DNA from: Anthostomella pinea
Taxonomy: Eukaryota > Ascomycota > Sordariomycetes > Xylariales > Xylariaceae
NCBI GenBank assembly: GCA_963556695.1
Contig: CAUWAG010000012.1
Span: 3,038,001 to 3,102,000 of the forward strand
Direction: 5' to 3'
Length of the DNA: 64,000 nucleotides
Shown here: positions 5,303-32,306 of the stretch, in pieces
Position numbering within the stretch: the first letter of the stretch is position 1
Layout of the letters: every line of letters starts with the position of its first letter
Position numbers and translations under genes: made by a program
The notes under the pieces: generated by a model
What the model saw: only the letters and a program-made list of their open reading frames with translations
Databases searched by the model: none
Told to the model about the DNA's origin: nothing

Positions 5303-5316
5303 CTAGTCTTGATATT
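5303..5316 (-). promoter_or_regulatory. Primer-binding site, self-priming type
   Basis: One base after the LTR end, the minus strand reads AATATCAAGACTAG. This is the exact reverse complement of CTAGTCTTGATATT inside the LTR (intact at 29220-29233 in a solo copy; one transition at 5386-5399 in the adjacent LTR). No match to a tRNA 3' end (TGG...) is seen. Tf1-type and some other fungal gypsy elements prime reverse transcription by folding the mRNA 5' end onto the PBS. I infer the same here. Confidence 0.75.
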
Positions 5317-5317
5317 A

Positions 5318-5529
5318 TGTCACGGCGAGCATACTGAGGAGCTGGGACATGGCCTGCAGCAAGCAGCTATTACTTTATTAACGAGAATATTAAGACTAGA
5401 GAGGAAAAGAAGAGAGAGAGAGATAGGTACAGTGGGAGGTTGCGCTTTTAAGGGGATCCTCTGGTCAGATCCTTCCTTTATTGGGAAGTATCCACTTGTC
5501 ATGCGGGAAGGTCTGTGCAGGCCGTCACA
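5318..5529 (-). repeat. 5' LTR (212 bp) of the gypsy element
   Basis: The ends are TGTGACGGC and GCCGTGACA on the minus strand. The same 212-bp sequence occurs as isolated copies at 29090-29301 (+) and 31320-31531 (-), which fixes both boundaries. A pyrimidine-rich stretch precedes the CTAGTCTT motif that is likely the start of R. The outer flank is AT-rich relic sequence. The matching 3' LTR and its target duplication are outside the window. Confidence 0.88.
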
Positions 5530-6790
5530 AATATTAAAAGAATTTCATATTTATAATTCGTTTCAAATTTTTTAAATTTTATTCGTATTTTTAAACTTAT
5601 ATTAATAATGAAGCTTTTCAACCTTAGATTTACATTTATTGATATTGAGATTTAATCTTATAACTTTGAAATAATATAAATTTTTTTTAATTTTTTTAAC
5701 ATAGTTTCTTTTTAATCTTAACCAATATACTAATATATTATTTGTACACATTAAATATATTATATTGAAGTAATTTTGTAATACGTTATTCATATAATAC
5801 TGAAACATTATAAACCAAAAAAAAATAAAAAATTTTAAGTATTGAAATAACTTAAATCTAATTTAAAACGTTATTTTTCTCATTCTTTTTTTCCTCATGT
5901 CTTATAAATACGTCTTTTATATTTAACTTGATAAACCTTTTTATATCTAATAAGGTTTTGAATATCTTTTAAATCAAAAATGACGGATATTTATTTGCTT
6001 AATAATCCCGTTCAAGCCTTAAAAATCGTAATAAAAATTTTAATCTTTATTAGCTTTATTTTATAAATAATGTTAAAAAACTTATTAAGAAACTATTAAC
6101 GCAGATAAACCTTACATTTAATAACTTGATTAAGATCTTTTTTAGTACTAATAGTTTTTTTTAATATTTTGTATATAATTCTAATATTATTTATAATTCG
6201 TGCCTGTCTTTCTTTTTAGCAAAGTATATTTCTATAACTAAAGCTTAGTTTTTATAAAAATGAAACTTCAATATTTTTAAAACTAAGTCTTTAAACTTTT
6301 TAAACTCATTTAAAAGCCACTTATTAAAATTAATCTTATTTTTTGGATATTAAAGCCTTAATAATACTTATTAAAGTAATTATAAAAATTGCCATTCATT
6401 TCATTTTAAAATCCTTAAACTTTTTATTTTTATTCGTTCTATTACCAAAACGTTTACGTTAATATAACGCGCTTTTTAAATATTTTATATTTTTACTATT
6501 TTTCATTTTAAACCATTTTAATTTGTTTTTCTTATTAAATTTTATGTACGTAATATATACTCATAAGTAATATTCATAACTTTATTTTATTTTGGTTAAA
6601 AACCTTTTTAAGATGAATATAGCCATTTTATGATATAAATACCGTTCGTTTTTTAAAGCCATTTATATTGACTTTTAACCATATTATCTCAATAATTGAT
6701 ATTTATTATATACTTTTTTGTCTCTTTTTATTACTTTTTATAGCTTTTATTGTTTAATTAATATATGTAATAACTTCAAACGTTCAACTA
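5530..6790 (-). mobile_element. AT-rich island: RIP-destroyed Ty3/gypsy relic
   Basis: This block is almost entirely A and T, with abrupt edges at the gypsy LTR (5529) and near 6790. On the minus strand from about 5930 to 5602 one frame still shows the skeleton of a gypsy reverse transcriptase. A TF..RF.LF.YL segment is followed by FQYYMNNVL, then CTNN where YLDD is expected, then LNINKCKSKVEKLHY where the conserved LNxxKCxFxV segment is expected. The substitutions are those expected if nearly all G:C pairs became A:T. The rest of the block (5960-6790) shows nothing readable. I see no host gene. Confidence 0.7.
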
Positions 6791-6908
6791 TAGTTTCGTT
6801 TAACGTGGATGACAGGCGAGCGGCCATTACAAGCGAACGGCAACTTTTTACCAACCTTACAACCAATATGTCAAATAACTCGACCACAACGTATTTAGTT
6901 TAATCTAA

Positions 6909-9890: not shown

Positions 9891-10303
9891 AGCGCCTGTG
9901 CGGGACGCCTTCTAAGAGCGATATATAGACTCTTTGGGAGTCTGAGTGTTCTGCTATTCTTAATGACATCGTTATTTGAACAATGAAATGAGTGATAGTC
10001 ATAACGCTGTTTGACGGACTCAAAGCCGGAGTTTACACGTTTCGATTCACGTGGAACCTCAGACCCCTGTACCAGAGCGTTTCCAAGGCATTGTTCTATA
10101 CATTAGGTTCGGGACTCTGGGGCTGGAGTGCAGAGCAGATCGATAACACATGGTACGAAGAGGCTTGAAGTTGCATCATGCATCCCATCACACGATCGTC
10201 ACATGTTGTCAGATTTAGGAATGGTCTGTATTAGAAGGGAAAGAAGGGATAGCTGATCGGGGTACCATCTTACTTAAATAGGTGGGAAAGAGACCTCTAA
10301 CAC
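9891..10303. other. Intergenic, nothing recognised
   Basis: No frame, repeat or RNA gene could be supported here. Confidence 0.4.
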
Positions 10304-10312
10304 CTAACATGT
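10304..10312. repeat. Target-site duplication, LINE-A copy 1 (left)
   Basis: ctaacatgt. The identical 9-mer at 11207-11215 directly follows the TCAA-type tail. Confidence 0.75.
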
Positions 10313-11206
10313 TGAAGTCCATGGCGCTCTCCAAGGTCTCGCAGCAGCCAGGGCGATTAGACGCGGAAAACGGCTGTATGTCTGTCTGGACAACACGTCA
10401 GTGGTAGATGGGCTCAATGGGACTCCACCTGAGACATCACAGAAAATTTTTCTACGATTCCAAGAACTTGCCACGGCACACACTCCTGGGGTGACCGTCA
10501 AGTGGATTCCTGGACACAGAGATATCAATGGCAACAAAGCTGCTGACACACTAGCAAAAGAGGGTGCCATGCTATAAACGGACGCAACGAACCTTCCCAC
10601 AATCTCTTGGGTCAAGAGAGATATCAAAAAAAAGGGCAAGAAAGAATTTGATCAATAATAAAAAGACCAATCAGAACCTAGGTATCAAGAAGTATACTCA
10701 TATATAATAACTAAAAAGGACCTTATATCTTTTGAAAGGAGCATTCTATACAGATTTCTAACGGCCAGATCTGAACATGGCGACTTTGCTAGATATTATG
10801 AACGTTTTGGGCATATAGACTCGAATGACCACTACAGCTACAGTAAGAAGAAAACACCACAATATATTTTCTTTTGTAAGAGGTTTGGGAAAAACTGACT
10901 ACTGCCCAGGTACTTGCCTAGGACAGCCTGTTTACAATACTTGGGGGAGAGGAGCGCGGAATGGGCAAGATTTGTTAAGAAGAGCAAGTTCTTTTTATCA
11001 ATCTGTCCTTGATAGATAGCTGTTCTTGAAGGACCAGATAGATAACCCTAAAGTCATACAGCTGCAACAATAGGGATGGGCCCGTGAGCGGGACTGACTG
11101 TACTTATTATCTTGAGACCTCCACAACCCTGCGATACAGAGGCTCTGGGAGGCGTGGTTTGCACTACTGAGGAGCTACCCCCCACGTTAAATACAATCAA
11201 TAACAG
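10313..11206 (+). mobile_element. 5'-truncated Tad-like LINE, family A copy 1
   Basis: It holds the 3' end of ORF2. There is an RNase H domain (VCLDNTSVVDGLNG..., WIPGHRDINGNKAAD) at 10313-10640. The C-terminal zinc-binding region (about 10790-11000) is followed by a 3' UTR ending CCCCCCACGTTAAATACAATCAATAA. The same sequence occurs on the opposite strand at 25450-27627. A 9-bp direct repeat, ctaacatgt, flanks it (10304-10312 and 11207-11215). Stops interrupt the frames, including TAA near 10576. The copy is dead. Confidence 0.88.
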
Positions 11207-11215
11207 CTAACATGT
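11207..11215. repeat. Target-site duplication, LINE-A copy 1 (right)
   Basis: ctaacatgt, matching 10304-10312. Confidence 0.75.
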
Positions 11216-17894: not shown

Positions 17895-18080
17895 TGTGAG
17901 CAGAATCCATCTGTGTATGTAAGCATGATGAGGCTGCCAGTTGCCGTGTCGGGTGACACAGGCTCCGTGGCCCCCATATATAGCGATCGCACACCAGAAC
18001 AGAGTAGATAGACCTTTTCCTGAATACAACAACGCTGTACCGTTCATCACGCACTCATCGGATCCGGGATATTGCTCTCA
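17895..18080 (+). repeat. 5' LTR of copia element
   Basis: TGTGAGCAG...TTGCTCTCA, 186 bp. It contains the TATATAGCG promoter-like motif at about 17978. It differs from the 3' LTR at six positions, with C or G here where the other has T or A. Confidence 0.93.
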
Positions 18081-18090
18081 TGGTAGCATC
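18081..18090 (+). promoter_or_regulatory. Copia primer-binding site
   Basis: TGGTAGCATC lies directly after the LTR. TGGTAGC is complementary to the GCTACCA 3' end of fungal initiator-Met tRNA. This is the usual copia primer. Confidence 0.65.
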
Positions 18091-18210
18091 TCTACAGTTC
18101 TGAACGATATCATTGACGAGAGCTCCCCCCTTTCCGACCCCCTGTCTGAGCGATACCTACACCATTGACCCCTTTCTGGTGCTAATAAGCGTTCTTTCTG
18201 TCATTATTGC

Positions 18211-19981
18211 ATGTCATACGAAGACAAATAGCGACAAGTGATTGGCAATCTGTTGGACCGCGCCAACTATCTTGAAGCCATATTCAGGACGATGGCCGAA
18301 CAAGATACTGCCCTCCTGGCAGATTGCGACGCTGAGGTGAAGTGTCTGCGAGATCAGATCGAGCAAATGATCATCGAGAGAAACGAAACAACTATTGCCC
18401 GAGATGAGGCAAACCTCGCAAGTGAGGAAACTGCTCGTGTGAACGAACAGATGAGGGCGAACTTCTCCAAGGATCTCAAGGAGATCAAGGAGACGATGGA
18501 GGCGATAAAGAAGCGCTCTTCGAGTTCGAGAGCTGCTAATCCTGACGCTGCTGAGAGTCCTCAGAGCGATCACAGGCCTGTTTCTCCGCTGAGATTCACG
18601 AGGGCATGGTTATCTACCCCATCTCCCTTCCCTTCAACCAACCCGTTTGCGCGTGACGTTAGGTTCGCAAACGACACTGCAAACAACCACAGTGAACACG
18701 TCATCTTCTCATCAGACGAAGAGGGCGATCAGGAGTGAGTCGACCCCAGTAACTCCTCAAGTGTAGAGGAAGTGATCGAAAGCCCCGCCGTCAGACTGGC
18801 GCACGAGGCATACGAGAAGGCTGTCGCCACCACCAAGAGCGCCGCCAAGGAGAAGAAGAAGGACTCAGTCAAGTCCAAGGTCAAGGCTGAGAGGAAGCCA
18901 TTCGCGTTTGAAGACTCCTCCGAGAGCGAGATTCCGTTGCCCAGATCAAAAGGCAAACGGAAGGTTGTTCGCTTTGAGGATCTGACCACTGACGAATCCA
19001 TCACCGACTTAAACGACGATCCTTCAGATGATTCGTCGTCGTCATCATCCTCAAGCTCCTCGTCGTCAGAAAACAAGATCTTGATAGGATCACACAGGAA
19101 GCGCAAAGAAGCGCGCCACAAGACGAAGCTTGAGAAGGTCGAGAGCGAGTGCAAGCTCAAGTGGAAGCGCTTCAGCTTCAAGCCTGACAAGGAGGCCTAT
19201 CTCAAGGGCCCCGGCAACTGGGAGAGATATAGACAAGCTCTCTTCCTTGCACTGTACGATATCGGTTGGGAAGACGACATGAAGCTCACCGATCGTGACA
19301 ACGTTCATCTGGCGAAGTACATTATCGAGAACTGCAAGCCGGAACCAATGGAGTTGGTCTCAGGGCTCCGAAGCGGCACGAAGATGCTCAAAACGTTTGC
19401 CAGAACGTGGAAGGACACCGGGAAGGTGTACCAGCGAGGTCTTTGGAGAGACCTAATGGGGCTCCAATACGATGGCAAGGACCCCACCAAGCACACGGCT
19501 ACCTTTGTTTGTCTCGTTCATCAGATTCGAGACTCTGGATCGGACCTGGATCACGAGCAACAGGTCACAATGTTCTTGATCAGTACGGAAAAGAACGCTG
19601 GAGACTGGAATAAGACCACCAGCAAGGTCATTCGCTCCATGAAGAGGGTGAAGCTCCAGTTCCTGATTGACGACTTCACCAACAAGTTCAGGTCGAAGAT
19701 CGGCAAGAATAACACTCCCCGAGGTGACAACAACAGCCACAACGCCGAATCTGACAATAACGGCGGTGGCCGAGGGAGAGGCAACGGCAGAGGCCGTGGA
19801 GGTCGAGGCCGTGGTGGCCGCAGTGGCCGTGGGGGCAATAACAACCGCGGAGACAATCAGGGATCCCGCGAATAGGACGCTGACGGCAAGCCCAAGTGCC
19901 GCAACTGTGGCAAATGGGGCCATATGAGACGCGACTGTACGAAACGTCAGCAAGATCAGCAACAACAGCCATCATAATAAC
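18211..19981 (+). pseudogene. Copia gag with zinc knuckle
   Basis: The ATG at 18211 is followed after six codons by TAG (18229-18231), probably from CAG. The frame continues as a coiled-coil-rich segment to TGA at 18736-18738. It then runs at 18739-19875 through an acidic/serine-rich linker, the capsid-like GPGNWERYRQALFLALYDIG region and an Arg/Gly-rich tail, to TAG at 19873-19875. The zinc knuckle CRNCGKWGHMRRDC (C-x2-C-x4-H-x4-C) follows at about 19897-19938, and TAATAA comes soon after. Gag forms the particle and the knuckle binds RNA. All frames are in phase, so the stops look like point mutations rather than frameshifts. Confidence 0.85.
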
Positions 19982-20779
19982 AACAGTCTGGTGGCAATGC
20001 TCAGAAGGTTGAGCTTGAGGCAAATATACCACCAGGACTGGAGTTCGCGAAGGGGACGCGTGCCGGTGGAGGCACGTTCGCCTGCGAGGGAGATCCTGAG
20101 AGCCTCCTCGAGCTATTCAGAGACTATGATCGAGAGATGGCTGCTCGGATCGCTGCTGTTAAGATTGAGACTGGCGTTGCGCAGTCAGCGCTGATGGATT
20201 CGGATAGCCTCTTCGAGCTCTTCAGTGAATATGATGCCGAAATGGCCCTGAGAGGCGCAGAATCGGCCGATCAACACGAAGAAGGCGTCCATATTAAGGA
20301 AGCCCTGGAGAGCTCAATGAGTGCTATAGCACACCTAATGGAGGCTCGCTCCTGAGTCACGCTTATGCATGAAGAGGATCTTGTGTGATACGGGCGCAAA
20401 CGTCACAATCACCAACGAAGAAGACGATATAGAGCCAGGCACCATGATCGATATACGCTCCAAGCGATATACCATTCGAACAGGTGCTGGCCCCGTCCTC
20501 ATGGACAAGATCGGCGTGATCAGATGGGATTTCACCGGTCCTGGCGGTCAGAAGACAACCGCAAAGTTCAACTATGGCCTGTTTTGCAATGTCTTCCCGT
20601 TAAAGATCTTCTCTGGAGAGATCTTTTATCGCGGAGGAGGCCAGATCCAAGGGAACAACTTGGTGAATCCAGATGGCATGGTCTTGACGATTATTAACGT
20701 ACCAAGGCGAGGATTCCTGTTGTGGGAATACGGTCAGCAAGAGCCTGCTATCCGATCCCCCAGACCAGCAGATCAATGA
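19982..20779 (+). pseudogene. Copia protease and preceding spacer
   Basis: The spacer (19982-20355) contains a duplicated acidic unit, ESLLELFRDYDREMA and DSLFELFSEYDAEMA, about 110 bp apart. The protease follows in frame at 20369-20779, with the active-site CDTGANVTITNE (DTG at 20387-20395) and GPVLMDKIGVI. It is an aspartic protease that cleaves the Gag-Pol polyprotein. A TGA (20353-20355) separates the spacer from the protease, so the polyprotein is interrupted. Confidence 0.8.
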
Positions 20780-20794
20780 GGATGCGAGCTGGGG

Positions 20795-22435
20795 ATGGCA
20801 ATCGGTCAGATCAACGAGTTAAGGGAGGTACTTCTCTCGTGTTCCGTTGACGGCATTTTTGTGGTGTCAGACGAGCTTTGGAGAAGGCTCGTCCTCTGGC
20901 ACAGACGCCTTTGCCACCCCAGCACCGAACGATTGATATGGATTATCAAACGCACCACAGGAATTGATCTAAACCCTGATCAGGTCGTCTGGATTCTGTG
21001 CATCGCTTGTGATCGAGCCAAGATCACCAAGATACCATCGAAGGATCTCCAAGAGAGAGGGCGATACGTCGGAGAGATCCTCTAGGTGGATACCGGAGAG
21101 ATTAAGCCCATCTCCGTCGAGAGTAAGCGGTATTTCACCCTAATCGTCGAGGACGTCAGCAGATTTCGAGAGTTCTTCACGCACAAGACGAAGGATGAAG
21201 CTTCCGAGGCCCTGATCGGGAGGATGAGATGGATATCAGAGACCCTCAAGGCACTCCCTCCACAACCAGATAGAAGCAGACGTCGAATAAAGACGCTGCG
21301 CCTGGATGGAGGTCGCAAATTTGGCATGTCAGCGATGAAACAAGCCTGTAATGACGAGGGAGTCACCCTAATCACCTCCATGCCACACAATCAGTATCAG
21401 AATGGCGTTGCTAAGCGAGGGATTCGCTTCTTGCAAGACGAGGCGAGGGCAACACACCTACAAATGCGAATTCCGAGCTTTTTATGGGATCACGTGTGCA
21501 CTGCAACATCGATCATCCTCAACCAAACGGGCCAATTAACAGTCGACGATACGCCCCTCAAGATCTTCTGGGACGCACTCGAACCCCACAATAATAACAG
21601 GCCCGATCTCAGCGAAGCAAAGATTATCGGATTGCGCTGTGTTATTTATATTGACGCGCAAAATTGCGTCACCGCTGAGAAGATGGAAGCGCGAGGCGCT
21701 AAGGGGATGTTCCTGGGATACGAAGGGGATCATAACTACGTCGTTTGGTTGATCAATGGAAACAGGTTTCTTCGAACACCACACGTCTATTTCTACGAAT
21801 TAACAGGCGAAGCCGATACCGACGCCCCCAATCCGAAAGACCTCGTACGATCTCTCCCCCGTCACATCCAGCAGCGCCTCCGCCACCGATCGAAGGCCAA
21901 GGGCTACATAAAGAACAAGGACGAGAATATCGTGGAGGAGGATATCACAGATAAAGAAGACGGCTCTCTGAAGAAGAAACGAGGCTGCCCGAAGAAGACA
22001 ACCCCTGTCTTTTCCTTTCCAGACGAATCTCCTATCATCGTATTTGCCGCCTGTGCTGTCCTTAAAGAGGGCGAGAGAGGCTCGCTTGACAACGAATTTG
22101 ACGCGAATTTCGGCGGCTTCTATGTGGGAGATGACATACATACACTGGAGGAGGAGCTCAATCGCACTCTCGCTCAAGAGCTGCTAGATTACGAGCGTCA
22201 GGAGATCTTCGGTGATCTCTCTGAGAAAGAATACTACACTAAGCTGTCAGACGCGTACGCTCTCCTCGTCGCAAATGCTGATGATCCCACATTCAAAGAA
22301 GCCATATCAGGGCCTGAGCGCGAGCTCTGGATCAAGGCCATCTTCGTGGAGATCCGGGAGAATCTCGAGAGGGGAACTTTCAAGTTCCGACCACCAACAG
22401 ATGCTATCTTGGGACACCTTATCGATGCCAAATAG
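20795..22435 (+). pseudogene. Copia integrase
   Basis: Zinc-binding HHCC: WHRRLCHPS and CIACDRAK at about 20898-21015. An in-frame TAG at 21083-21085 separates this from the core, which starts VDTGEIKP (first Asp). The second Asp is in LRLDGGRKFG. Thirty-five residues later, where the catalytic Glu of DD35E belongs (NG-A-E-R), the sequence has Lys (NGVAKRG, codon AAG 21413-21415, one G-to-A change from GAG). The C-terminal chromatin-associated part reads GAKGMFLGYEG. The frame ends with TAG at 22433-22435. Even with readthrough this enzyme should be inactive. Confidence 0.87.
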
Positions 22436-23871
22436 GTCCTGAAAAAGAAGTATCTTTTAACAGCTGAGCTCGAGAAGCTCAAGGCGCGAGTCATTGCCAG
22501 AGGATTTACGCAACGCAAAGGGATTGACTACAATGAGACTGCCGCCACAACGGCGAAGGCAGCATCCTGGCGTATCATAATGGCACTCGCGGCCTTATTC
22601 GAGTGGCACATCATACAGGTAGACTTCGTCGCCGCCTATCTCAACGGTGAATTGGAGGAGCGCATATTCATGCGGCAGTTCCCTATGTTCAAAGAATATT
22701 TTAATGCATATCCAGAGGAGAAGGAGAGATACGGCTACCAGGAGGACTCGATAATCGAGCTCTGTAACCCTGGCAGAAAAGAGTTCGCGAGATCCTCAAG
22801 GCGCGAGGCTTCATACCCGTGATTAGTGATGATGACATCTATATCAACAGAAGTACGGGGGATATCATCGCCTCGTATGTGGACGACTTCCTGCTATTCG
22901 GACCCGACCTCCAGTGACTCAAGGATGTCGCCGCCAGTATCAAGGAAGAGGTCCAGATCAAGGATATGGGTGACGCTGATTGGTTTATCAGCGTCAGGAT
23001 AGTCAGGAACGCAGAAGTTGGCGATGTGAGGCTTGACCAGGCGCAATATATAGCGAAGGCACTCAAGTCTATTAGATTTGACAAATCGCAACCAGTTTCT
23101 TCACCGTTTGACCCTATTAGCCAAGAGCACGCCTTCTTAAGGGATCGAATAGATCAAGCAACTAACAAAGAAGTATTCGAATATGCCTCCATGGTTGGTA
23201 AATTGAACTTCCCTGCGTATATAACACGCCCTGATCTCTCGTTTGCAACCTCAACCTGGGTGCAATTCATGAGCAATCTATTGCCAAAGCACTCTATAGC
23301 ACTCAAGCGAGTGGCTAAATACGTCAGAGGCACTGTTAATTGAGGGATACCCTATTGCAAGCTGACGCCGCAGCACGAACACCATCAATATGGTGATTAC
23401 GGACTGTTCGGCGCCTGCGATGCTGGCCTCGCTGGCAACCAGAATGATGCCAAGTCGATCACGTGATACGTGTTCTTCATGGCTGGCACGCCCGTCCTTT
23501 GGCGAATGATCGTTCAGAAGGTTGTCACCAAGGGCTCAACAGAATCAGAGTTCGTTGCCCTCAATGAAGCTGCTGAGGATGCCGCATACATTTGTAACCT
23601 GTTCACAGAGCTTGACTTGATGCCAGAGGGTCCTGTCACGCTGATACAGGACAATACCGGCGCAGAATCTTGGGCGAGGGACCCCAAGATGTCAAAGAAG
23701 CGCCGTCACGTCCGCCTGGCATACAATTATATACGTCAAGAGGTTGACAAAGGCATGATCAAGCTCGAGCATGTGAAGAGCGAAAAGAACCCTGCAGACG
23801 GCTTCACGAAGCCCTTAGGCATCCAGGCATTTGAGGAGTTTGTCGCCTTTTTGCAGATAGAGGATTTCTAA
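22436..23871 (+). pseudogene. Copia reverse transcriptase and RNase H
   Basis: The RT N-terminal region reads ARVIARGFTQRKGIDYNET and VDFVAAYLNGELEE. Around 22765-22785 the usual LYGLKQ segment is missing and the frame shifts, so a small deletion removed part of the palm. The frame then resumes with the catalytic YVDD at 22876-22887. TGA occurs at about 22917, and further stops at 23341-23343 and 23464-23466. RNase H is readable (GCDAGLAG-like, STESEFVALNEAA, NPADGFTKPLG) to TAA at 23869-23871. The family copies element RNA into DNA. Confidence 0.87.
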
Positions 23872-23969
23872 AGACAAAAAGAGAGAAAACACCAGGTTTT
23901 TGGCTATCTACACATCGTGGCAAGGGATATCTGGTCTCATAGCCTCCAGCACACAGCTGGAAGAGGGCG

Positions 23970-24155
23970 TGTGAGCAGAATCCATCTGTGTATGTAAGTA
24001 TGATGAGGCTGCCAGTTGCCGTATCGGGTGACACAGGCTCTGTGGCCCCCATATATAGCGATCGTACACCAGAACAGAGTAGATAGACCTTTTCCTGAAT
24101 ACAATAACGCTGTACCGTTCATCACGCACTCATTGGATCCGGGATATTGCTCTCA
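23970..24155 (+). repeat. 3' LTR of copia element
   Basis: 186 bp. All six differences from the 5' LTR are T or A here against C or G there (five C-to-T, one G-to-A). Confidence 0.93.
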
Positions 24156-24160
24156 TCATA
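24156..24160. repeat. Target-site duplication of copia element (right)
   Basis: tcata, identical to 17890-17894. Confidence 0.92.
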
Positions 24161-24612: not shown

Positions 24613-24626
24613 TATACCTAGGCACC
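24613..24626. repeat. Target-site duplication of SINE (left)
   Basis: tatacctaggcacc, a perfect 14-mer repeated at 25190-25203. Confidence 0.9.
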
Positions 24627-25189
24627 GGCCATATGGTGCAATGGTCAAATGCGCTTGGTTGTGTTCTCGTTTGTGCGGTGAGCGATGAGAACAAGTGGGT
24701 TCAAATCCTGCTACGGCCCCCTTCTGACCCGGCTTGTACGAGTTGATAACCAGCACACTACAGTGGAGAGGCCCTATTATCGCAGAGCCCAATAGCCAAG
24801 CAGCTTGTCTCCATAATACCCACTCCTGTGAGGTTTTTCCCTTTGTGGTTTCCCTTGCTAGCAGATAACAAATACCTGTTTTATTCACCAATGCGACATA
24901 TATCGGACGGCTACTGGAACGATGTGTACACCAGAAGACTGAGGTCTACTGGGTCGCTTTGTCACTGGACAGGAGGTTTTTCTGACAAAATTATGCTTGG
25001 GTATTGACTAAAAACCATTCAGACACTCCATGTTAGTACCGCTACAGCGAGGATGGGTTTGTGCGCAGACCTGAATATATCTAGACTGACACCTCTACAA
25101 CCTTGCGATGCAATGGCTCTGTGAGGCGTGGTTTACCTTGTTGAGGCACTGCACCCACGATATATAAAATCAATCAATCAATCAATCAA
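24627..25189 (+). mobile_element. tRNA-derived SINE with LINE-A tail
   Basis: The head (24627-24721) is tRNA-like. The acceptor arm GGCCATA pairs with TACGGCC (one A-C mismatch). The A box is TGGTGCAATGG and the B box GGTTCAAATCC. D and T stems form with wobbles, and a 7-bp hairpin TGTTCTC/GAGAACA lies between. The body (24722-25040) is unrelated to anything else here. The last 150 bp (25041-25189) match the 3' UTR of LINE family A (compare 11060-11205), including GGCTCTG-GAGGCGTGGTTT, and end in five TCAA units. A perfect 14-bp target duplication flanks the whole. A Pol III-transcribed SINE moved by the LINE-A enzyme is the natural reading. Confidence 0.88.
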
Positions 25190-25203
25190 TATACCTAGGC
25201 ACC
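25190..25203. repeat. Target-site duplication of SINE (right)
   Basis: tatacctaggcacc, identical to 24613-24626. Confidence 0.9.
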
Positions 25204-25434: not shown

Positions 25435-25449
25435 GATATGTAGCCTTAT
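25435..25449. repeat. Target-site duplication of LINE-A copy 2 (left)
   Basis: gatatgtagccttat. The partner at 27628-27642 is gatacgtggccttat. The two differences are both transitions (C/T and G/A). Confidence 0.8.
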
Positions 25450-26001
25450 GATTGATTGATTGATTGTATTTAACGTGGGGGGTAGCTCCTCAGTAGTGCA
25501 AACCACGCCTCCCAAAGCCTCTGTATCGCAGGGTTGTGGAGGTCTCAAGATAATAAGTACAGTCAGTCCCGCTCACGGGCCCATCCCCGTTGTTGCGGCG
25601 GTATGACCTTGGGGTCATCCATCTGGTCCTTCAAGACAAGCTATTTATCGGGGGCAGATTGTTGAAAAGAACTTGCTCTTCTCCACAAATTTTGCCCATT
25701 CTGTGCTCCTCTTCCCTAAGTATTGTAAACAAGCTGTCTTAGGCGAGTACCTAGGCAATAGCCAGTTTTTCCCCAGCCTCTTACAAAAGAAAATGTGTTG
25801 TGGTGTTTTCTTCTCACCACAGCTGTAGTGATCATTCGAGTCTGTATGCCCAAAGCGTTCATGGTATCTAGCAAAGTCGCCATGTCCAGATCTGGCCGCT
25901 AGAAGTCTGTGTAGAGTGCTCCTCTTAAAGGATATGAGGCCTCTTTCAGTTACTGTATGTGAGTATACTTCTTGATACTTAGATTCTGATTGGTCTTTCC
26001 A

Positions 26002-26463
26002 TCATTGGTTGAATTCTTTCTTGCCCTTTCTCTTGAGATCTCTCTTGACCCAAGAGATTGTAGGGAGGTTTGTTGTGTCTATTTCTAGCATAGCACCTTC
26101 TTTTGTTAATATATCAGCAGCTTCGTTATCATCAATATCTCTGTGTCCAGGAATCCATTTGACGATCACTCCAGGAGTGTGTGCTGTGGCAAGTTCTTGA
26201 AATCGTAGAAAAATATTCTGTGATGTCTCGGGTGGAGTCCCATTAAGCCTATCTACCACTGACGTATTGTCCAGGCAGACATATAACTGTTTTCTGTGTC
26301 CAATTGCCCTGGCTGCTGCAAGACCTTGGAGAGCACCATGGACTTCAGCATCTACTACTTCTGCTTGGAGAAGTCTGCCCTTTCCCCGGTATACTTCTTG
26401 TGTAGTGCCGCCTTTCCTGATAGTATAACCCCATCCAGTGCGGGTTGTGCCTTGGTCGTCCAA
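26002..26463 (-). pseudogene. LINE-A RNase H domain
   Basis: This is a 153-codon open segment with RNase H features. Asp/Glu-containing strands include GWGYTIRK, EVVDAEVHGALQGL (first acidic cluster), LYVCLDNTSVV (catalytic Asp) and WIPGHRDIDDNEAADIL (last catalytic Asp region). It removes the RNA from RNA:DNA hybrids during LINE retrotransposition. It is the best-preserved part of the copy, and also occurs at 10313-10640 on the plus strand. Confidence 0.85.
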
Positions 26464-27088
26464 CTATGATCCATCTGAATAGATGACAAGGTCAGTGTTC
26501 ATGTTTCTCTCCTGTAGCCATTGCTTGAAGAGCTCTGTTTTTTGTCTTTGTCTTTGTCTTTACGGATTGGTGGCTTCTTCCATAATGGCCTGGTAAGTGT
26601 TGGTCTCTGGAAGTCAGGGACTAGCTGAAAGCTCCTTTGTAGCCTTGTTGGATTCTTGCGAGCTTGTATTTGGAGCCTGCCAACAAGAGGGTGTCTCTGG
26701 TCTATTCGTCCTAGTCGGAGGCCGTGACATCGTCTTATTGACTCTGCAAGAACTCCTGCTGGGGGAATCTGCGATTCAAAGTGTAGGATATGTCCAGGGT
26801 GTGTTTTCCAGACTGGCAAGATAGCCCTGATCGCTGTTCGTAGTACGGCATTTATTGTTCCAAGAAGCCCCTTAATGCGACATGCTGATATCCCACCTAA
26901 GCTCCTGACTTTCTTAATTCTTGGGTACCAGGCCTCTAGGCCGTGTGTAAGAATAGGAATAACACAAGCTTTCACAGCCCTCTTGGTTAACTTTACTGGA
27001 AGTCCTTTGACTGTGTTGCATAGTCCTCGAAGGTGATTTGCTACCTTATTAGCTTTCTTGGCCCAGTAGGAAACGTGATTTTTGAAGT

Positions 27089-27502
27089 TTAGTTTCTATC
27101 CAGAAAGACACCCAGCCATCGTATGGAGTTCTTTGCTGGTTTGTTCATTGTCCCGTGACGGACTGGAGGGTTGTCTGAGTTCTTTTTCTTTAAGAAGTGC
27201 ATGATCTCAGTTTTGTCAGGGTCAAATTCAATAGCGTTGTTATGTCCCAATTGACTGAGCAAGTAAAGATTTTCAGAAGCCTCTTTAGCTGTTTCCTTAA
27301 GGTTCTTTCCAATGCAGAGAGTTGCTAGGTTGTCTGCATATCTAAAGTGTCTCTTTTTCATACCAAGTCGGGCATAGATTGGCTCTGTATACAGCATATA
27401 AAGGATTGGAGAGGCTGGTGAGCCTTGTGGTAGCCCATAAGTGAGAGCTTTAATATTGGTCACAATACCTTCAAACCGAACCCTTGCGGACCGCTCGGAC
27501 AT
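27089..27502 (-). pseudogene. LINE-A reverse transcriptase fragment
   Basis: It covers the RT palm. GLPQGSPASPILYMLYTEP is motif B, RYADNLATLCIG carries the mutated active site, and EIMHF with RWLGVFLD are the D and E motifs. Upstream of 27502 the frame continues past one TAG into the FDAAL motif. The element is truncated at 27627, before the remaining RT motifs. Confidence 0.85.
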
Positions 27503-27627
27503 GAATGACTGGACCCATCTTATGCGAAAGCCCGGCTAGCCCTGTTCTCTCATGCGAACCACCAGCCGTCCTATTAGAGCAGCATCAAAGGCCCCTTTCA
27601 CATCTGACGTGACTACTGTTGCAACGA

Positions 27628-27642
27628 GATACGTGGCCTTAT
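27628..27642. repeat. Target-site duplication of LINE-A copy 2 (right)
   Basis: gatacgtggccttat. It also forms one arm of a 10-bp perfect inverted repeat (ATACGTGGCC / GGCCACGTAT) in the empty site. Confidence 0.8.
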
Positions 27643-28671: not shown

Positions 28672-29003
28672 TGTCAGATAAAACAGATAAGATCATCGTG
28701 CGCAGAATGACTGTACACCTTACCGTTTTGGTCTAGGGGTAAAATCCAACAATTAAGAGTCTCATCGCTTGACGAGCTAGCTGCGCACGGCGCAAGCCAA
28801 TGGTTCCACTAGACCCAGCTTTTAGAAAAGGCGCGAGTTCGATTCCCGTAGAGGTCCAATAGCGACGAACAGAAGAAAAGTCCAGCTTACCTCCGAAGTC
28901 ATCGCAGCCAAGCTGAGGGGGTGTGTCAGATAAAACAGATAAGATCATCGTGCGCAGAATGACTGTACACCTTACCGTTTTGGTCTAGGGGTAAAATCTA
29001 ACA
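28672..29003. mobile_element. TRIM-like element with 80-bp terminal repeats
   Basis: An 80-bp sequence starting TGTCAGAT and ending TAACA/CAACA occurs at 28672-28751 and 28924-29003 in direct orientation with one C/T difference. The 172-bp interior ends in the purine tract GAGGGGGTG just before the second repeat. The flanks gctgt (28667-28671) and actgt (29004-29008) fit a 5-bp target duplication with one G/A change. The repeat carries a tRNA A-box-like TGGTCTAGGGG, and the interior a B-box-like GTTCGATTCC, so a tRNA or SINE origin of part of the sequence is also possible. Confidence 0.6.
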
Positions 29004-29089
29004 ACTGTCGTTCCGGTCTGATAGGTCACCAGGAGGGGCGTAAGGGCCATTTCTTGCACTGCTTCATAGATTTCTGGCAGTGGACGATG

Positions 29090-29301
29090 TGTGACGGCCT
29101 ACACGGACCTTCCCACATGACAAGCCAATACTTCCCAATAAGCGAAGGATCTGAACAGAGGATCCCCTTAAAGGGGCAACCTCCCACTGTACCTATCTCT
29201 CTCTCTCTTCCTTTCTTCTCTAGTCTTGATATTCTCATCAATAGAGTAATAGCTGCTTGCTGCCGGCCATGTCCCAGCTCCTCAGTACGCTCGCTGTGAC
29301 A
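29090..29301 (+). repeat. Solo LTR of the gypsy family
   Basis: 212 bp, TGTGACGGCC...GCTGTGACA, same family as 5318-5529. Flanks: cgatg (29085-29089) and caatg (29302-29306), a 5-bp duplication with one G-to-A difference. It carries the intact CTAGTCTTGATATT motif (29220-29233) used for self-priming. Confidence 0.9.
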
Positions 29302-29305
29302 CAAT

Positions 29306-30148
29306 GTCCTCTGGGGCTTTTGCTCTCCCGCAAGAGCATTCACAGATAGCGTCTTGGTGTCCAAACTTGTCGTGATACCAGGCAAAGTCACCGCGCCCTG
29401 TACGGGTGGCAAGATAGTGATGTAATGCTGGCCTTATAAGCACCTGTAGCTCCTCGTGACAACGCAGGTGATAACCCAGGTTCCAGTCCTTGTAGCGAGA
29501 CGATAGTGTTGCTTGTGCCTTGTCCCACCATTTCTCACGAGCTGCAGCTCCCTTTATTTGCGCTATGGACTTAATACCGTAAGCTGTGGGCGTACAGTCG
29601 CTATTGATGACAGGCAGCTTGGAGCCGTCCTTAGCCAGCTTGTCTGCAAGCTCGTTGCCTTGGACGTTGCAGTGGCCGGGACACCACTTGACACTAACGT
29701 CCCAGATTTCCGCCGCTGCGTAGAATTTTAGATAGGCCCACTGACAAGAGACCGCGGCGTTGCTGCGGAGTCCCCAGATCGCTCTTGTATTATCTACGCA
29801 TACCCAGATCCGGTGCTGGCTCAGCTCCGGAGGGGCCTTGATCACGTACTAGAGCCCTTTTTATGCTCCTACTACTTCTGCATCGAATATGATGGAGCAC
29901 GGGTATATGCGGCCCTTATTTGAGGCAAGGAGTTGCCCGCCTTAATAGACCGCATAGCCGTATCCTACGCATGTTCTGTCTTTTGATCTGTCCGAGAACA
30001 CCACTATATCCTTTTGGGGCAGTGTTTGAAACCATGCTTTAAAGGACTCTGCCGCCTGCTCTTTGGTTTGACCCCTTGTTAGGTCAGCGCTGTAGCCCCT
30101 TGTGAATCTTGGTGGCACCAATAAGGGCTGTTGCACTGGGAGTAGCAT
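29306..30148 (-). pseudogene. LINE-B RNase H and C-terminal zinc motif
   Basis: RNase H motifs: VVFSDRSKDRTCVGYGYAVY (30010-29942), IFDAEVVGA, VCVDNTRAIWGLR and WCPGHCNVQGNELADKLAKDG. Then comes the C-terminal CxCxC region. A TAG near 29942 and others near 29850 break the frame. The solo LTR at 29090-29301 cuts the zinc motif between EDI and HCQK. Confidence 0.85.
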
Positions 30149-30715: not shown

Positions 30716-32306
30716 TTACGGCTCTTGTACGGGGTAGATAGTAAGTCTTTCGCCTATTATTATAGGAGGATTGGTATTTTCTTGGCCCCTAGTAATGTAA
30801 AGTAGTTCATACTTCTTAGGGGCAAGGAACACCTTGTTCTCATCTCCCCATTGTAAGACCTGCTTGAGGTCGTCGGCTAAGAGGTCCACGTTGTGTTGCA
30901 ACAACTTAGACACCTTGTAGAGTGCTATATCGTCAGTATACCCAAAGCGTAGGTCTGGATCCTGCTATAGTAGCTCAGCCAGGTATAGCATGTAGAGTAC
31001 CGGTGACCATGGTGAGCCCTGGGGGGTGCCGCAATGCACTTCCCCAAAGTTCGTAGATGTTTGTTCTAGGCGTACCTTGGCACGCTGTTTTTTTAGAAAA
31101 AACTGCACCAGTTCTAGACAGTCTATTGGCCAGCCCTGCTTTCTTATCCGCAGCAATAGACGTCTCATTAACAGGGCGTCAAACGTACCCTGTACATTGA
31201 GTGTAGCCATTGAGACCTTGAGACCCTTGGCCAGTGCAGCCTCCACGTTGTGGGTAAAAGAGGCCACCAGGTCCATGCATGCTCTTTTTGGGAGAGCGCT
31301 GTCGTGTTGTGAGCTGAACTGTCACGGCGAGCGTACTGAGGAGCTGGGACATGGCCGGCAGCATGCAGCTATTACTCTATTGACGAGAATATCAAGACTA
31401 GAGAGGAAAGAAAGAGAGAGAGAGATAGGTACAGTGGGAGGTTGCCCCTTTAAGGGGATCCTCTGGTCAGATCCTTCCCCTATTAGGAAGTATCCACTTG
31501 TCATGTGGGAAGGTCTGTGCAGGCCGTCACATGAACAGTCCTTGTGAAAGCGCTGTTTAGGTCATCCTCTTGGCTAACATCCGTTCCAGGCCCTTGCTCA
31601 GGCAAGAGAGAAGTGCGATTGGTCTCCAAGACCGCGTCGAGGAGCGGTCCTTCTTCCCCGCCTTAGGTATCATTGATAAATCTGTATCCCGTCAGGTTGT
31701 AGGGTAATGGCGCAGTTAAAGGCACTTCTTAAAGACCTCGTATATAGCGTTCTTGATATGCTCCCAGCACGCCTTGAGCAGGCGTACCGTGATGCTGTCT
31801 ACACCAGGGGATATACTAGGTACCCCTATTATATACTGCTCAACTTCCTCCATTATAGCCGACGTTTCTAAGTAGAGCTTTGCCTCCGACTCTCGCCAGC
31901 CTTCTAGAGGATCATAGTCCAGGTCGTCTGTGCTCGAGAAGCAGCCCAAGATCTCTTCTTGTAGTACTTCTGCCTTTTCCTCGGTAGATTCTACCACTCG
32001 ATCACCCACTTTGAGCGGCGGGGACTTGAGCCATAGACCTAGCTTGTGCCAGGTGATAACCTTGTATAGAGCTTTGTCGGTATTGGCCAAGTTGATGATC
32101 TTTTTCTAGTATTCCTATTTGGCCTTACGTACCACTACAAGGAAATAATGATGCTCTTTTGTGAATTCCTGCTGCTCTAGGCGCCCAATGGCCTTAAACG
32201 CTCTGTAGACGTCGTAGGCAGCTTTGTATTTGTCAGTCCACCAGGGGGCTGTGTGTCCTCTGTTAGAAGCCGGTTTACCCCCCGCTAGAAGCGCCGACCG
32301 TATCAC
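30716..32306 (-). pseudogene. LINE-B reverse transcriptase, interrupted by solo LTR
   Basis: The N-terminal part reads APWWTDKYKAAYDVYRAFKA, then VPSISPGVDSITVRLLKACW. SWRPIALLSCLSKGLERMLAKR comes just before the LTR at 31531-31320. After the LTR, ALPKRACMDLVASFTHNVE resumes, then TPQGSPWSPVLYMLYLAELL and GYTDDIALYKVSKLL (active site, Ala to Thr). The ordered RT motifs on both sides of the LTR show it landed in a once-continuous frame. Confidence 0.87.
31320..31531 (-). repeat. Solo LTR of the gypsy family
   Basis: 212 bp in the opposite orientation to 29090-29301. Perfect 5-bp target duplication tgaac (31315-31319 and 31532-31536). It interrupts the LINE-B reverse transcriptase. Confidence 0.93.

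What the first reader, a model, noticed from the sequence alone, without database searches (positions are those of the whole stretch)
24613..25203. New-looking tRNA-derived SINE with a LINE-A tail and perfect 14-bp duplication
It combines a tRNA-like head with A and B boxes and a pairing acceptor stem, a unique body, and 150 bp matching the 3' UTR of LINE-A including the TCAA tail. The enzyme source is present twice in the same window. The LINE/SINE partnership can therefore be read directly. Few fungal SINEs of this kind are described.
Basis: partly seen in the sequence, partly recalled or inferred. Interest (0 to 1): 0.8.

Follow-up and report, generated by a model that had tools for sequence, protein, structure and literature searches.

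The report
Fungal SINE borrowing its LINE's tail
A short tRNA-headed jumping gene, present in hundreds of copies in this fungus, ends in a tail like that of a longer jumping gene whose enzymes probably copy it, and its youngest copies carry the exact current tail of that partner.

Summary
Window 24627-25189 is a 563-bp element between perfect 14-bp duplications. It has a tRNA-like head with A and B boxes, a body with no kept reading frame, a last part of about 150 nt that is 78% identical to the 3' end of a LINE present twice in the window, and a (TCAA)n tail. It is a SINE family: the head matches 251 places in the 53.7-Mb genome, and 27 of 30 copies examined have 13-18-nt target duplications. 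The window copy is the most diverged of those 30.

The larger result lies outside the given coordinates. A young subfamily carries, in place of the old tail, the last 60 or so nt of the partner LINE, including the (AAAC)n repeat of its young copies in place of (TCAA)n. The chimeric junction occurs in 96 places, 79 exact; 26 of 40 scored copies, the query included, are identical over 548 nt.

So this is a new member of a known kind (SINE with a LINE tail, as Mg-SINE/MGL), probably in a Xylariales fungus near Biscogniauxia, with tail capture visible in one genome. Mobilisation by this LINE is inferred; the donor of the old tail was not found.

The parts
24613..24626 (.). left target-site duplication, TATACCTAGGCACC
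24627..24721 (+). tRNA-like head (A box 24634-24644, B box 24698-24708, acceptor arms 24627-24633 and 24712-24718)
   Evidence: Rfam tRNA match in copies L013, L074, L002 but not in this copy; majority-sequence head folds as a cloverleaf
24662..24693 (+). long hairpin in the place of the anticodon arm (arms 24662-24670 and 24685-24693; perfect 9-bp stem in the majority sequence)
   Evidence: sequence shown; fold
24722..25038 (+). SINE body without detected similarity to the LINE
25039..25166 (+). LINE-like 3' region (majority sequence from 412)
   Evidence: 78% to the LINE 3' end
25167..25189 (+). (TCAA)n tail repeat
25190..25203 (.). right target-site duplication
25448..27628 (-). 5'-truncated LINE-A copy with a (TCAA)n tail, 92.4% to the long copy on C10
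10309..11201 (+). 5'-truncated LINE-A copy (first base uncertain by a few), flanked by 10299-10312 and 11202-11215, 13 of 14 identical

Best explanation
The element is a tRNA-headed SINE. Its head supplies an internal RNA polymerase III promoter (A and B boxes). Its RNA ends in a 3' region and short repeats that imitate those of the LINE called LINE-A here. The LINE's protein (endonuclease, reverse transcriptase, RNase H) takes the SINE RNA by that tail, nicks a target and copies the RNA in place, leaving duplications of about 14 nt. LINE-A has ends with (TCAA)n and, in its youngest copies, with (AAAC)n. A SINE copy acquired the young LINE's 3' end by recombination or template switching inside a 22-nt stretch common to both, and that chimera spread to about 95 places. 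Shown: anatomy, copy numbers, duplications, the chimeric junction, identity of many young copies, similar duplication lengths in LINE and SINE, the domains of the LINE. Inferred: Pol III transcription, use of LINE-A protein in trans, the order (TCAA)n before (AAAC)n in the LINE, the direction LINE to SINE, and the molecular step of the swap.
For: Family: 40 scored of 461 candidates, these 40 near full length; head 251, body 177, old tail 168 places, reversed controls 0. Duplications in 27 of 30 copies (21 exact, 13-16 nt), 240 controls at most 9. tRNA head. LINE-like tail. Young subfamily: alignment of nine loci; chimeric 76-mer in 96 places, 79 exact, one of the 96 being the composite L024; 26 of 40 scored copies (of 870 candidates), the query included, identical over 548 nt; nine copies on one side of a branch, support 100/97, in a tree built without the tail. 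Breakpoint: 35 informative sites between old SINE and LINE; left of it 20 of 22 scorable sites are SINE-like, right of it 11 of 11 LINE-like, two sites match neither; Fisher p = 4e-7 with the breakpoint chosen afterwards. Duplications in 7 of 10 young loci at score 12 or more, controls at most 6. LINE-A: 440 ends; AAAC ends 98 + 217, TCAA ends 120; exact 14-17-nt duplications in 6 of 30 loci, 240 controls at most 11; one 5.6-kb copy with 13-nt duplications, an ORF1 and EN, RT and RNase H domains.
Against: No transcript, protein or assay. The old tail is only 78% like LINE-A, so LINE-A may not have moved the old copies. Conserved folding of the shared tail is weak (z -0.4 to -0.8), and the minimum-energy fold of the young SINE tail lacks the stem seen in the other three. 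The body holds two T5 runs that might end Pol III transcription early (the first is T4 in 8 of 9 LINE-tailed entries where it was measured). The one long LINE-A copy read has one in-frame stop in ORF2; an intact copy was not shown. In 24 of 30 LINE loci no duplication of 13 nt or more was found in the stretch held, as expected if those copies reach further upstream, but untested. The AU test does not separate two origins of (AAAC)n in the SINE from one (p 0.42).
Confidence: 0.86

Rival explanations
1. Two LINEs in succession: the old SINE copies, including the window's, were moved by a different, now lost or unseen relative of LINE-A that had the exact old tail. Only the young subfamily is moved by LINE-A.
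For: The old tail differs from LINE-A by about 22% over 150 nt although nine LINE-A copies compared are 91-100% alike among themselves.
Against: Of 28 loci fetched by their old-type tail (of 168 hits), 24 continue into SINE body and 4 (L068, L086, L090, L096) carry only the last 81-182 nt; in L090 that piece follows LINE-A ends, but no LINE with the old tail of its own was seen. The sample is partial, so this is weak. TCAA-tailed LINE-A copies exist as possible helpers.
Confidence: 0.35
2. The (AAAC)n and LINE-type tail of the young SINEs arose without a LINE donor, by convergent mutation in the SINE or by slippage of the reverse transcriptase.
For: Ten SINE copies have an old-type 3' region but AAAC repeats, so the repeat can change without the rest.
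Against: Right of the breakpoint the young copy read matches the LINE at 11 of 11 scorable informative sites, and most young copies read share the irregular first unit CAAAACAAAC with the LINE; convergence at so many sites is not credible for the whole segment.
Confidence: 0.05
3. Not a SINE family but tRNA pseudogenes or fused fragments spread by segmental duplication.
For: The cloverleaf is imperfect and the anticodon arm is replaced by a long hairpin.
Against: Copies sit at different places with their own duplications and tails.
Confidence: 0.02

Closest known systems
Mg-SINE with its LINE MGL/MGR583 (Magnaporthe)
   Same: tRNA-type fungal SINE whose 3' end resembles that of a LINE; listed as a SINE/LINE pair in PMC3747384 (passages read) and said to use 'molecular mimicry' of MGL in PMC2104539 (passages read)
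   Different: No sequence comparison was made here. The passages read mention no subfamily that has taken over a changed LINE tail.
SINE2-1_BG with Tad1-24_BG (Blumeria graminis)
   Same: Fungal tRNA-type SINE paired with a Tad1 LINE (table passage of PMC3747384)
   Different: Other host; sequences not held, not compared.
AfuSINE2-1a with I-1_AF (Aspergillus fumigatus)
   Same: tRNA-type SINE with a 3' end similar to a LINE 3' UTR and a short tail repeat (ACT)n (PMC5063351, passages read)
   Different: Here hundreds of copies, among them a near-identical young subfamily; tail repeat and host differ.
LINE-tail exchange in animal SINEs with conserved domains
   Same: A SINE body acquires a new LINE tail (named as a hypothesis in PMC6887750, one passage read; the CORE-SINE case is recalled)
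   Different: There, as I recall, seen between families; here donor LINE, recipient SINE, chimera and a sharp breakpoint are in one genome and many chimeras are identical.

Membership tests
tRNA-derived SINE | 5' head related to a tRNA with A and B boxes | tested here: met
   Boxes present; Rfam tRNA at gathering score in L013, just below in L074, weak in L002, absent for the window copy; parent tRNA not identified
tRNA-derived SINE | dispersed, many copies, each with its own target-site duplication | tested here: met
   251 heads; 27 of 30 with duplications
tRNA-derived SINE | transcribed by RNA polymerase III | not testable with these tools
   no RNA data; T5 runs in the body are a caution
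tRNA-derived SINE | codes for no protein | tested here: met
   A 124-aa frame in the majority sequence (6 of 300 shuffles as long) is kept in 3 of 30 copies; the window copy's longest is 38 aa and three young copies have a different one of 76 aa
Stringent SINE/LINE pair | SINE 3' end shared with a LINE of the same genome | tested here: met
   78% over 150 nt for old copies; identical last 60 or so nt between young SINEs and LINE-A ends of the six-C type such as L047
Stringent SINE/LINE pair | conserved 3' stem-loop recognised by the LINE protein | tested here: inconclusive
   a common CGTGG/CCACG stem in the minimum-energy fold of 3 of 4 tails, z-scores only -0.4 to -0.8
Stringent SINE/LINE pair | LINE protein mobilises the SINE | not testable with these tools
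   needs a retrotransposition assay
Tad1-clade LINE (for LINE-A) | EN-RT-RNase H ORF2 and placement in the clade by an RT tree | tested here: inconclusive
   EN and RNase H above Pfam cut-off, RT below it in the piece searched; no RT tree built, the clade name is recalled

The most novel reading that the evidence does not exclude
A SINE that keeps pace with its LINE: when the LINE's tail repeat and 3' end changed, the SINE took over the new end, possibly in steps (first the AAAC repeat alone, 10 copies; then the whole last 60 nt, about 95 copies), perhaps through in-register insertion of a LINE-type tail into an old SINE. Locus L024 looks like such an event caught half-way: old body, LINE-type tail with (AAAC)n, then the old SINE tail again, all inside one 14-nt duplication.
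Probability: 0.5. Interest if true: 0.72.

Novelty: new member of a known kind. Interest (0 to 1): 0.55.

Why it matters
How SINEs acquire and keep LINE tails is usually inferred from old, diverged families (recalled). Here the donor LINE, the old and new SINE, apparent intermediates and a sharp junction sit in one genome, and both partners have identical copies, so both may be active. That makes it a natural test of which part of the 3' end the LINE enzyme reads: the unique 3' segment, the repeat unit, or both.

Tried and rejected
Repeat-induced mutation as the cause of the window copy's decay: 34 of its 47 differences are C>T or G>A, but by dinucleotide the rates are CG 12/60, CA 11/89, CT 8/66, CC 3/79, not the CpA preference I recall for RIP; not supported.

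L024 as a second young lineage: its body lies away from the young clade, but after the LINE-type tail the old SINE tail follows; read as an in-register nested insertion or template jump. Holding it with the young clade is not rejected (p-AU 0.13). L089 is the same locus as L024; it was removed for but was still in the tree and in the tallies.

Two separate captures of (AAAC)n: suggested by the tree, not supported by the AU test (p 0.42).

A LINE with the old SINE tail: not found; 28 of 168 tail hits read.

A protein coded by the SINE: a 124-aa frame in the majority sequence is kept in 3 of 30 copies; dropped.

The parent tRNA: ARAGORN calls differ (Glu for the window copy; His for the majority sequence), so none is claimed.

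Literature: all in the open-licence PMC library; one search gave no paper, and long results were listed only in part. No title on a SINE of Xylariales was among those listed. PMC12369201 (Neoarthrinium moseri genomes) holds the word SINE once; I saw its listing only. Read in passages only: PMC5063351, PMC2104539, PMC3747384, PMC4176376, PMC6887750.

Full report
The element. Window 24627-25189 is flanked by two perfect copies of TATACCTAGGCACC (24613-24626, 25190-25203). The head has an A box (TGGTGCAATGG, 24634-24644) and a B box (GGTTCAAATCC, 24698-24708). In the majority sequence of 30 copies the acceptor arms pair at 7 of 7 positions (GGCCGTA with TATGGCC, one G-U), and the head folds into a cloverleaf by minimum energy. 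The anticodon arm is replaced by a longer hairpin with a perfect 9-bp stem. Rfam's tRNA model reaches its gathering score in L013 (29.3 bits), falls just below it in L074 (28.2), is weak in L002 (21.6), and finds nothing in the window copy at E<=1. The body shows no similarity to the LINE; the last part of about 150 nt is 78% identical to the LINE end at 25449-25598 and 77% to that at 11074-11201. No reading frame is kept among the copies: a 124-aa frame of the majority sequence is in 3 of 30.

It is a family. A genome search (53.7 Mb, 16 contigs) gave 461 candidates; 40 were scored and these are near full length. With at most 3 mismatches the head 50-mer occurs 251 times, a body 61-mer 177 times and the old-tail 62-mer 168 times; reversed patterns give 0. 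Of 30 copies with flanks, 27 have duplications of 13-18 nt (21 exact, 13-16 nt; six with one or two mismatches), while 240 controls with another locus's flank never score above 9. Two copies (L017, L030) show none; L024 was missed by the script but has a 14-nt one by eye. The window copy is the most diverged of the 30: 91.6% to the majority sequence against 94.4-98.6%.

The LINE. LINE-A has 440 3' ends at up to 3 mismatches. Among nine copies compared over 880 nt, identities run from 91% to 100% (L036 and L040 are identical). One copy (C10, about 1463360-1468957, in loci L101 and L035, itself inserted in another LINE-A copy) is 5.6 kb with a 13-nt duplication, an ORF1 of 547 aa without a Pfam match and an ORF2 with endonuclease (PF14529), reverse transcriptase (PF00078, below the curated cut-off in the piece searched) and RNase H (PF00075), interrupted by one stop. 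Six of 30 LINE loci show an exact 14-17-nt match between the sequence after the tail and the sequence upstream; 240 controls reach 11 at most. The tail repeat is (TCAA)n in 120 ends and (AAAC)n in 98 + 217 (patterns and mismatch limits differ, so these do not simply add up). The named proteins closest to its RNase H part are from Xylaria and Seiridium. For one host gene in the window, an acyltransferase, the closest named relatives are from Biscogniauxia marginata (79% over 85%), B. mediterranea and Camillea tinctor (only the best 7996 candidates were scored). The host is therefore probably a Xylariales fungus near Biscogniauxia; this rests on one gene and the LINE.

The tail swap. Twelve regions were fetched because the body hits showed a uniform class; one of 61 bases was not used. 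Of the eleven others, ten (all but L080) end not in the old tail but in GCACTACTGAGGAGCTACCCCCCACGTTAAATACAAAACAAAC or a close variant, which is the end of LINE-A copies of the six-C type (nine shown in the alignment; L075). Between old SINE and LINE there are 35 informative sites. Left of the shared 22-nt stretch GGCTCTGGGAGGCGTGGTTTGC a young copy (L072) is SINE-like at 20 of 22 scorable sites, right of it LINE-like at 11 of 11; two sites match neither; Fisher p = 4e-7 with the breakpoint chosen afterwards. The 76-mer across the junction occurs 96 times, 79 exact; one of the 96 is the composite L024. A search with one young copy scored 40 of 870 candidates: 26, the query included, are identical over 548 nt and the other 14 are 99-100%. 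Seven of ten young loci have duplications scoring 12 or more (12-16 nt), controls at most 6; L079 has a poor one and L070, a 5'-truncated copy, a 14-nt one by eye. In a tree without the tail the nine usable young copies form one group (support 100/97); they lie among old copies, but the backbone is weakly supported.

An intermediate class has the old 3' region but AAAC repeats: 10 places, three of them (L065, L066, L098) one group in the tree. Whether this class and the young one acquired AAAC once or twice is not settled (AU p 0.42). At L024 an old-type body carries a LINE-type end with AAAC repeats, then the old SINE tail again, all within one 14-nt duplication. L090 shows three tails in a row. 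These look like in-register insertions or template jumps; template jumps are reported for MGL and Mg-SINE in Magnaporthe (PMC2104539, passages).

What is inferred. That LINE-A protein moves the SINE rests on the shared tail, similar duplication sizes and shared youth; that such LINEs read a cognate 3' tail is shown for other pairs (PMC4176376, PMC3747384, passages). A conserved fold of the tail is not well supported here. No LINE with the old tail was found among 28 old-tail loci, so the helper of the old copies is uncertain.

Novelty. Fungal SINE/LINE pairs are known (Mg-SINE/MGL; SINE2-1_BG/Tad1-24_BG; AfuSINE2-1a/I-1_AF), so the element is a new member of a known kind. The distinctive part is the recent capture of the LINE's changed end by the SINE within one genome. 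The check before this submission changed several details and numbers but none of the odds.

Noticed in passing
window 28672-28752 and 28924-29004: Two 81-nt direct repeats (99% alike), each holding an A-box-like GGTCTAGGGGTA; between them lies a B-box-like GAGTTCGATTCCCG. ARAGORN finds no tRNA in 28701-28900. Possibly another tRNA-related element.
   Followed up: partly
window 5311-5532, 29087-29308, 31320-31531: Three copies of a repeat of about 212 nt (90-93% alike) with TGT..ACA-like ends, two of them in opposite orientation around a second LINE-like region (by eye); could be solo LTRs or a small transposon.
   Followed up: no
window 17895-24156: Open frames 18739-19875 and 21086-22435 that look copia-like (by eye) between two 187-nt direct repeats 97% alike: an LTR-type element ending about 470 bases before the SINE.
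   Followed up: no
window 5540-6800: AT-rich stretch of about 1.3 kb, seen by eye.
   Followed up: no
L068, L096, L090, L024: SINE tail fragments that begin at nearly the same place (positions 466-471 of the majority sequence), as if reverse transcription often stops there.
   Followed up: partly
window 24834-24838 and 24977-24981: T5 runs inside the SINE that could act as Pol III terminators; the first is T4 in 8 of the 9 LINE-tailed entries where it was measured.
   Followed up: partly
C10 about 1463360-1468957 (L101, L035): The long LINE-A copy is inserted in another LINE-A copy in the opposite orientation.
   Followed up: no
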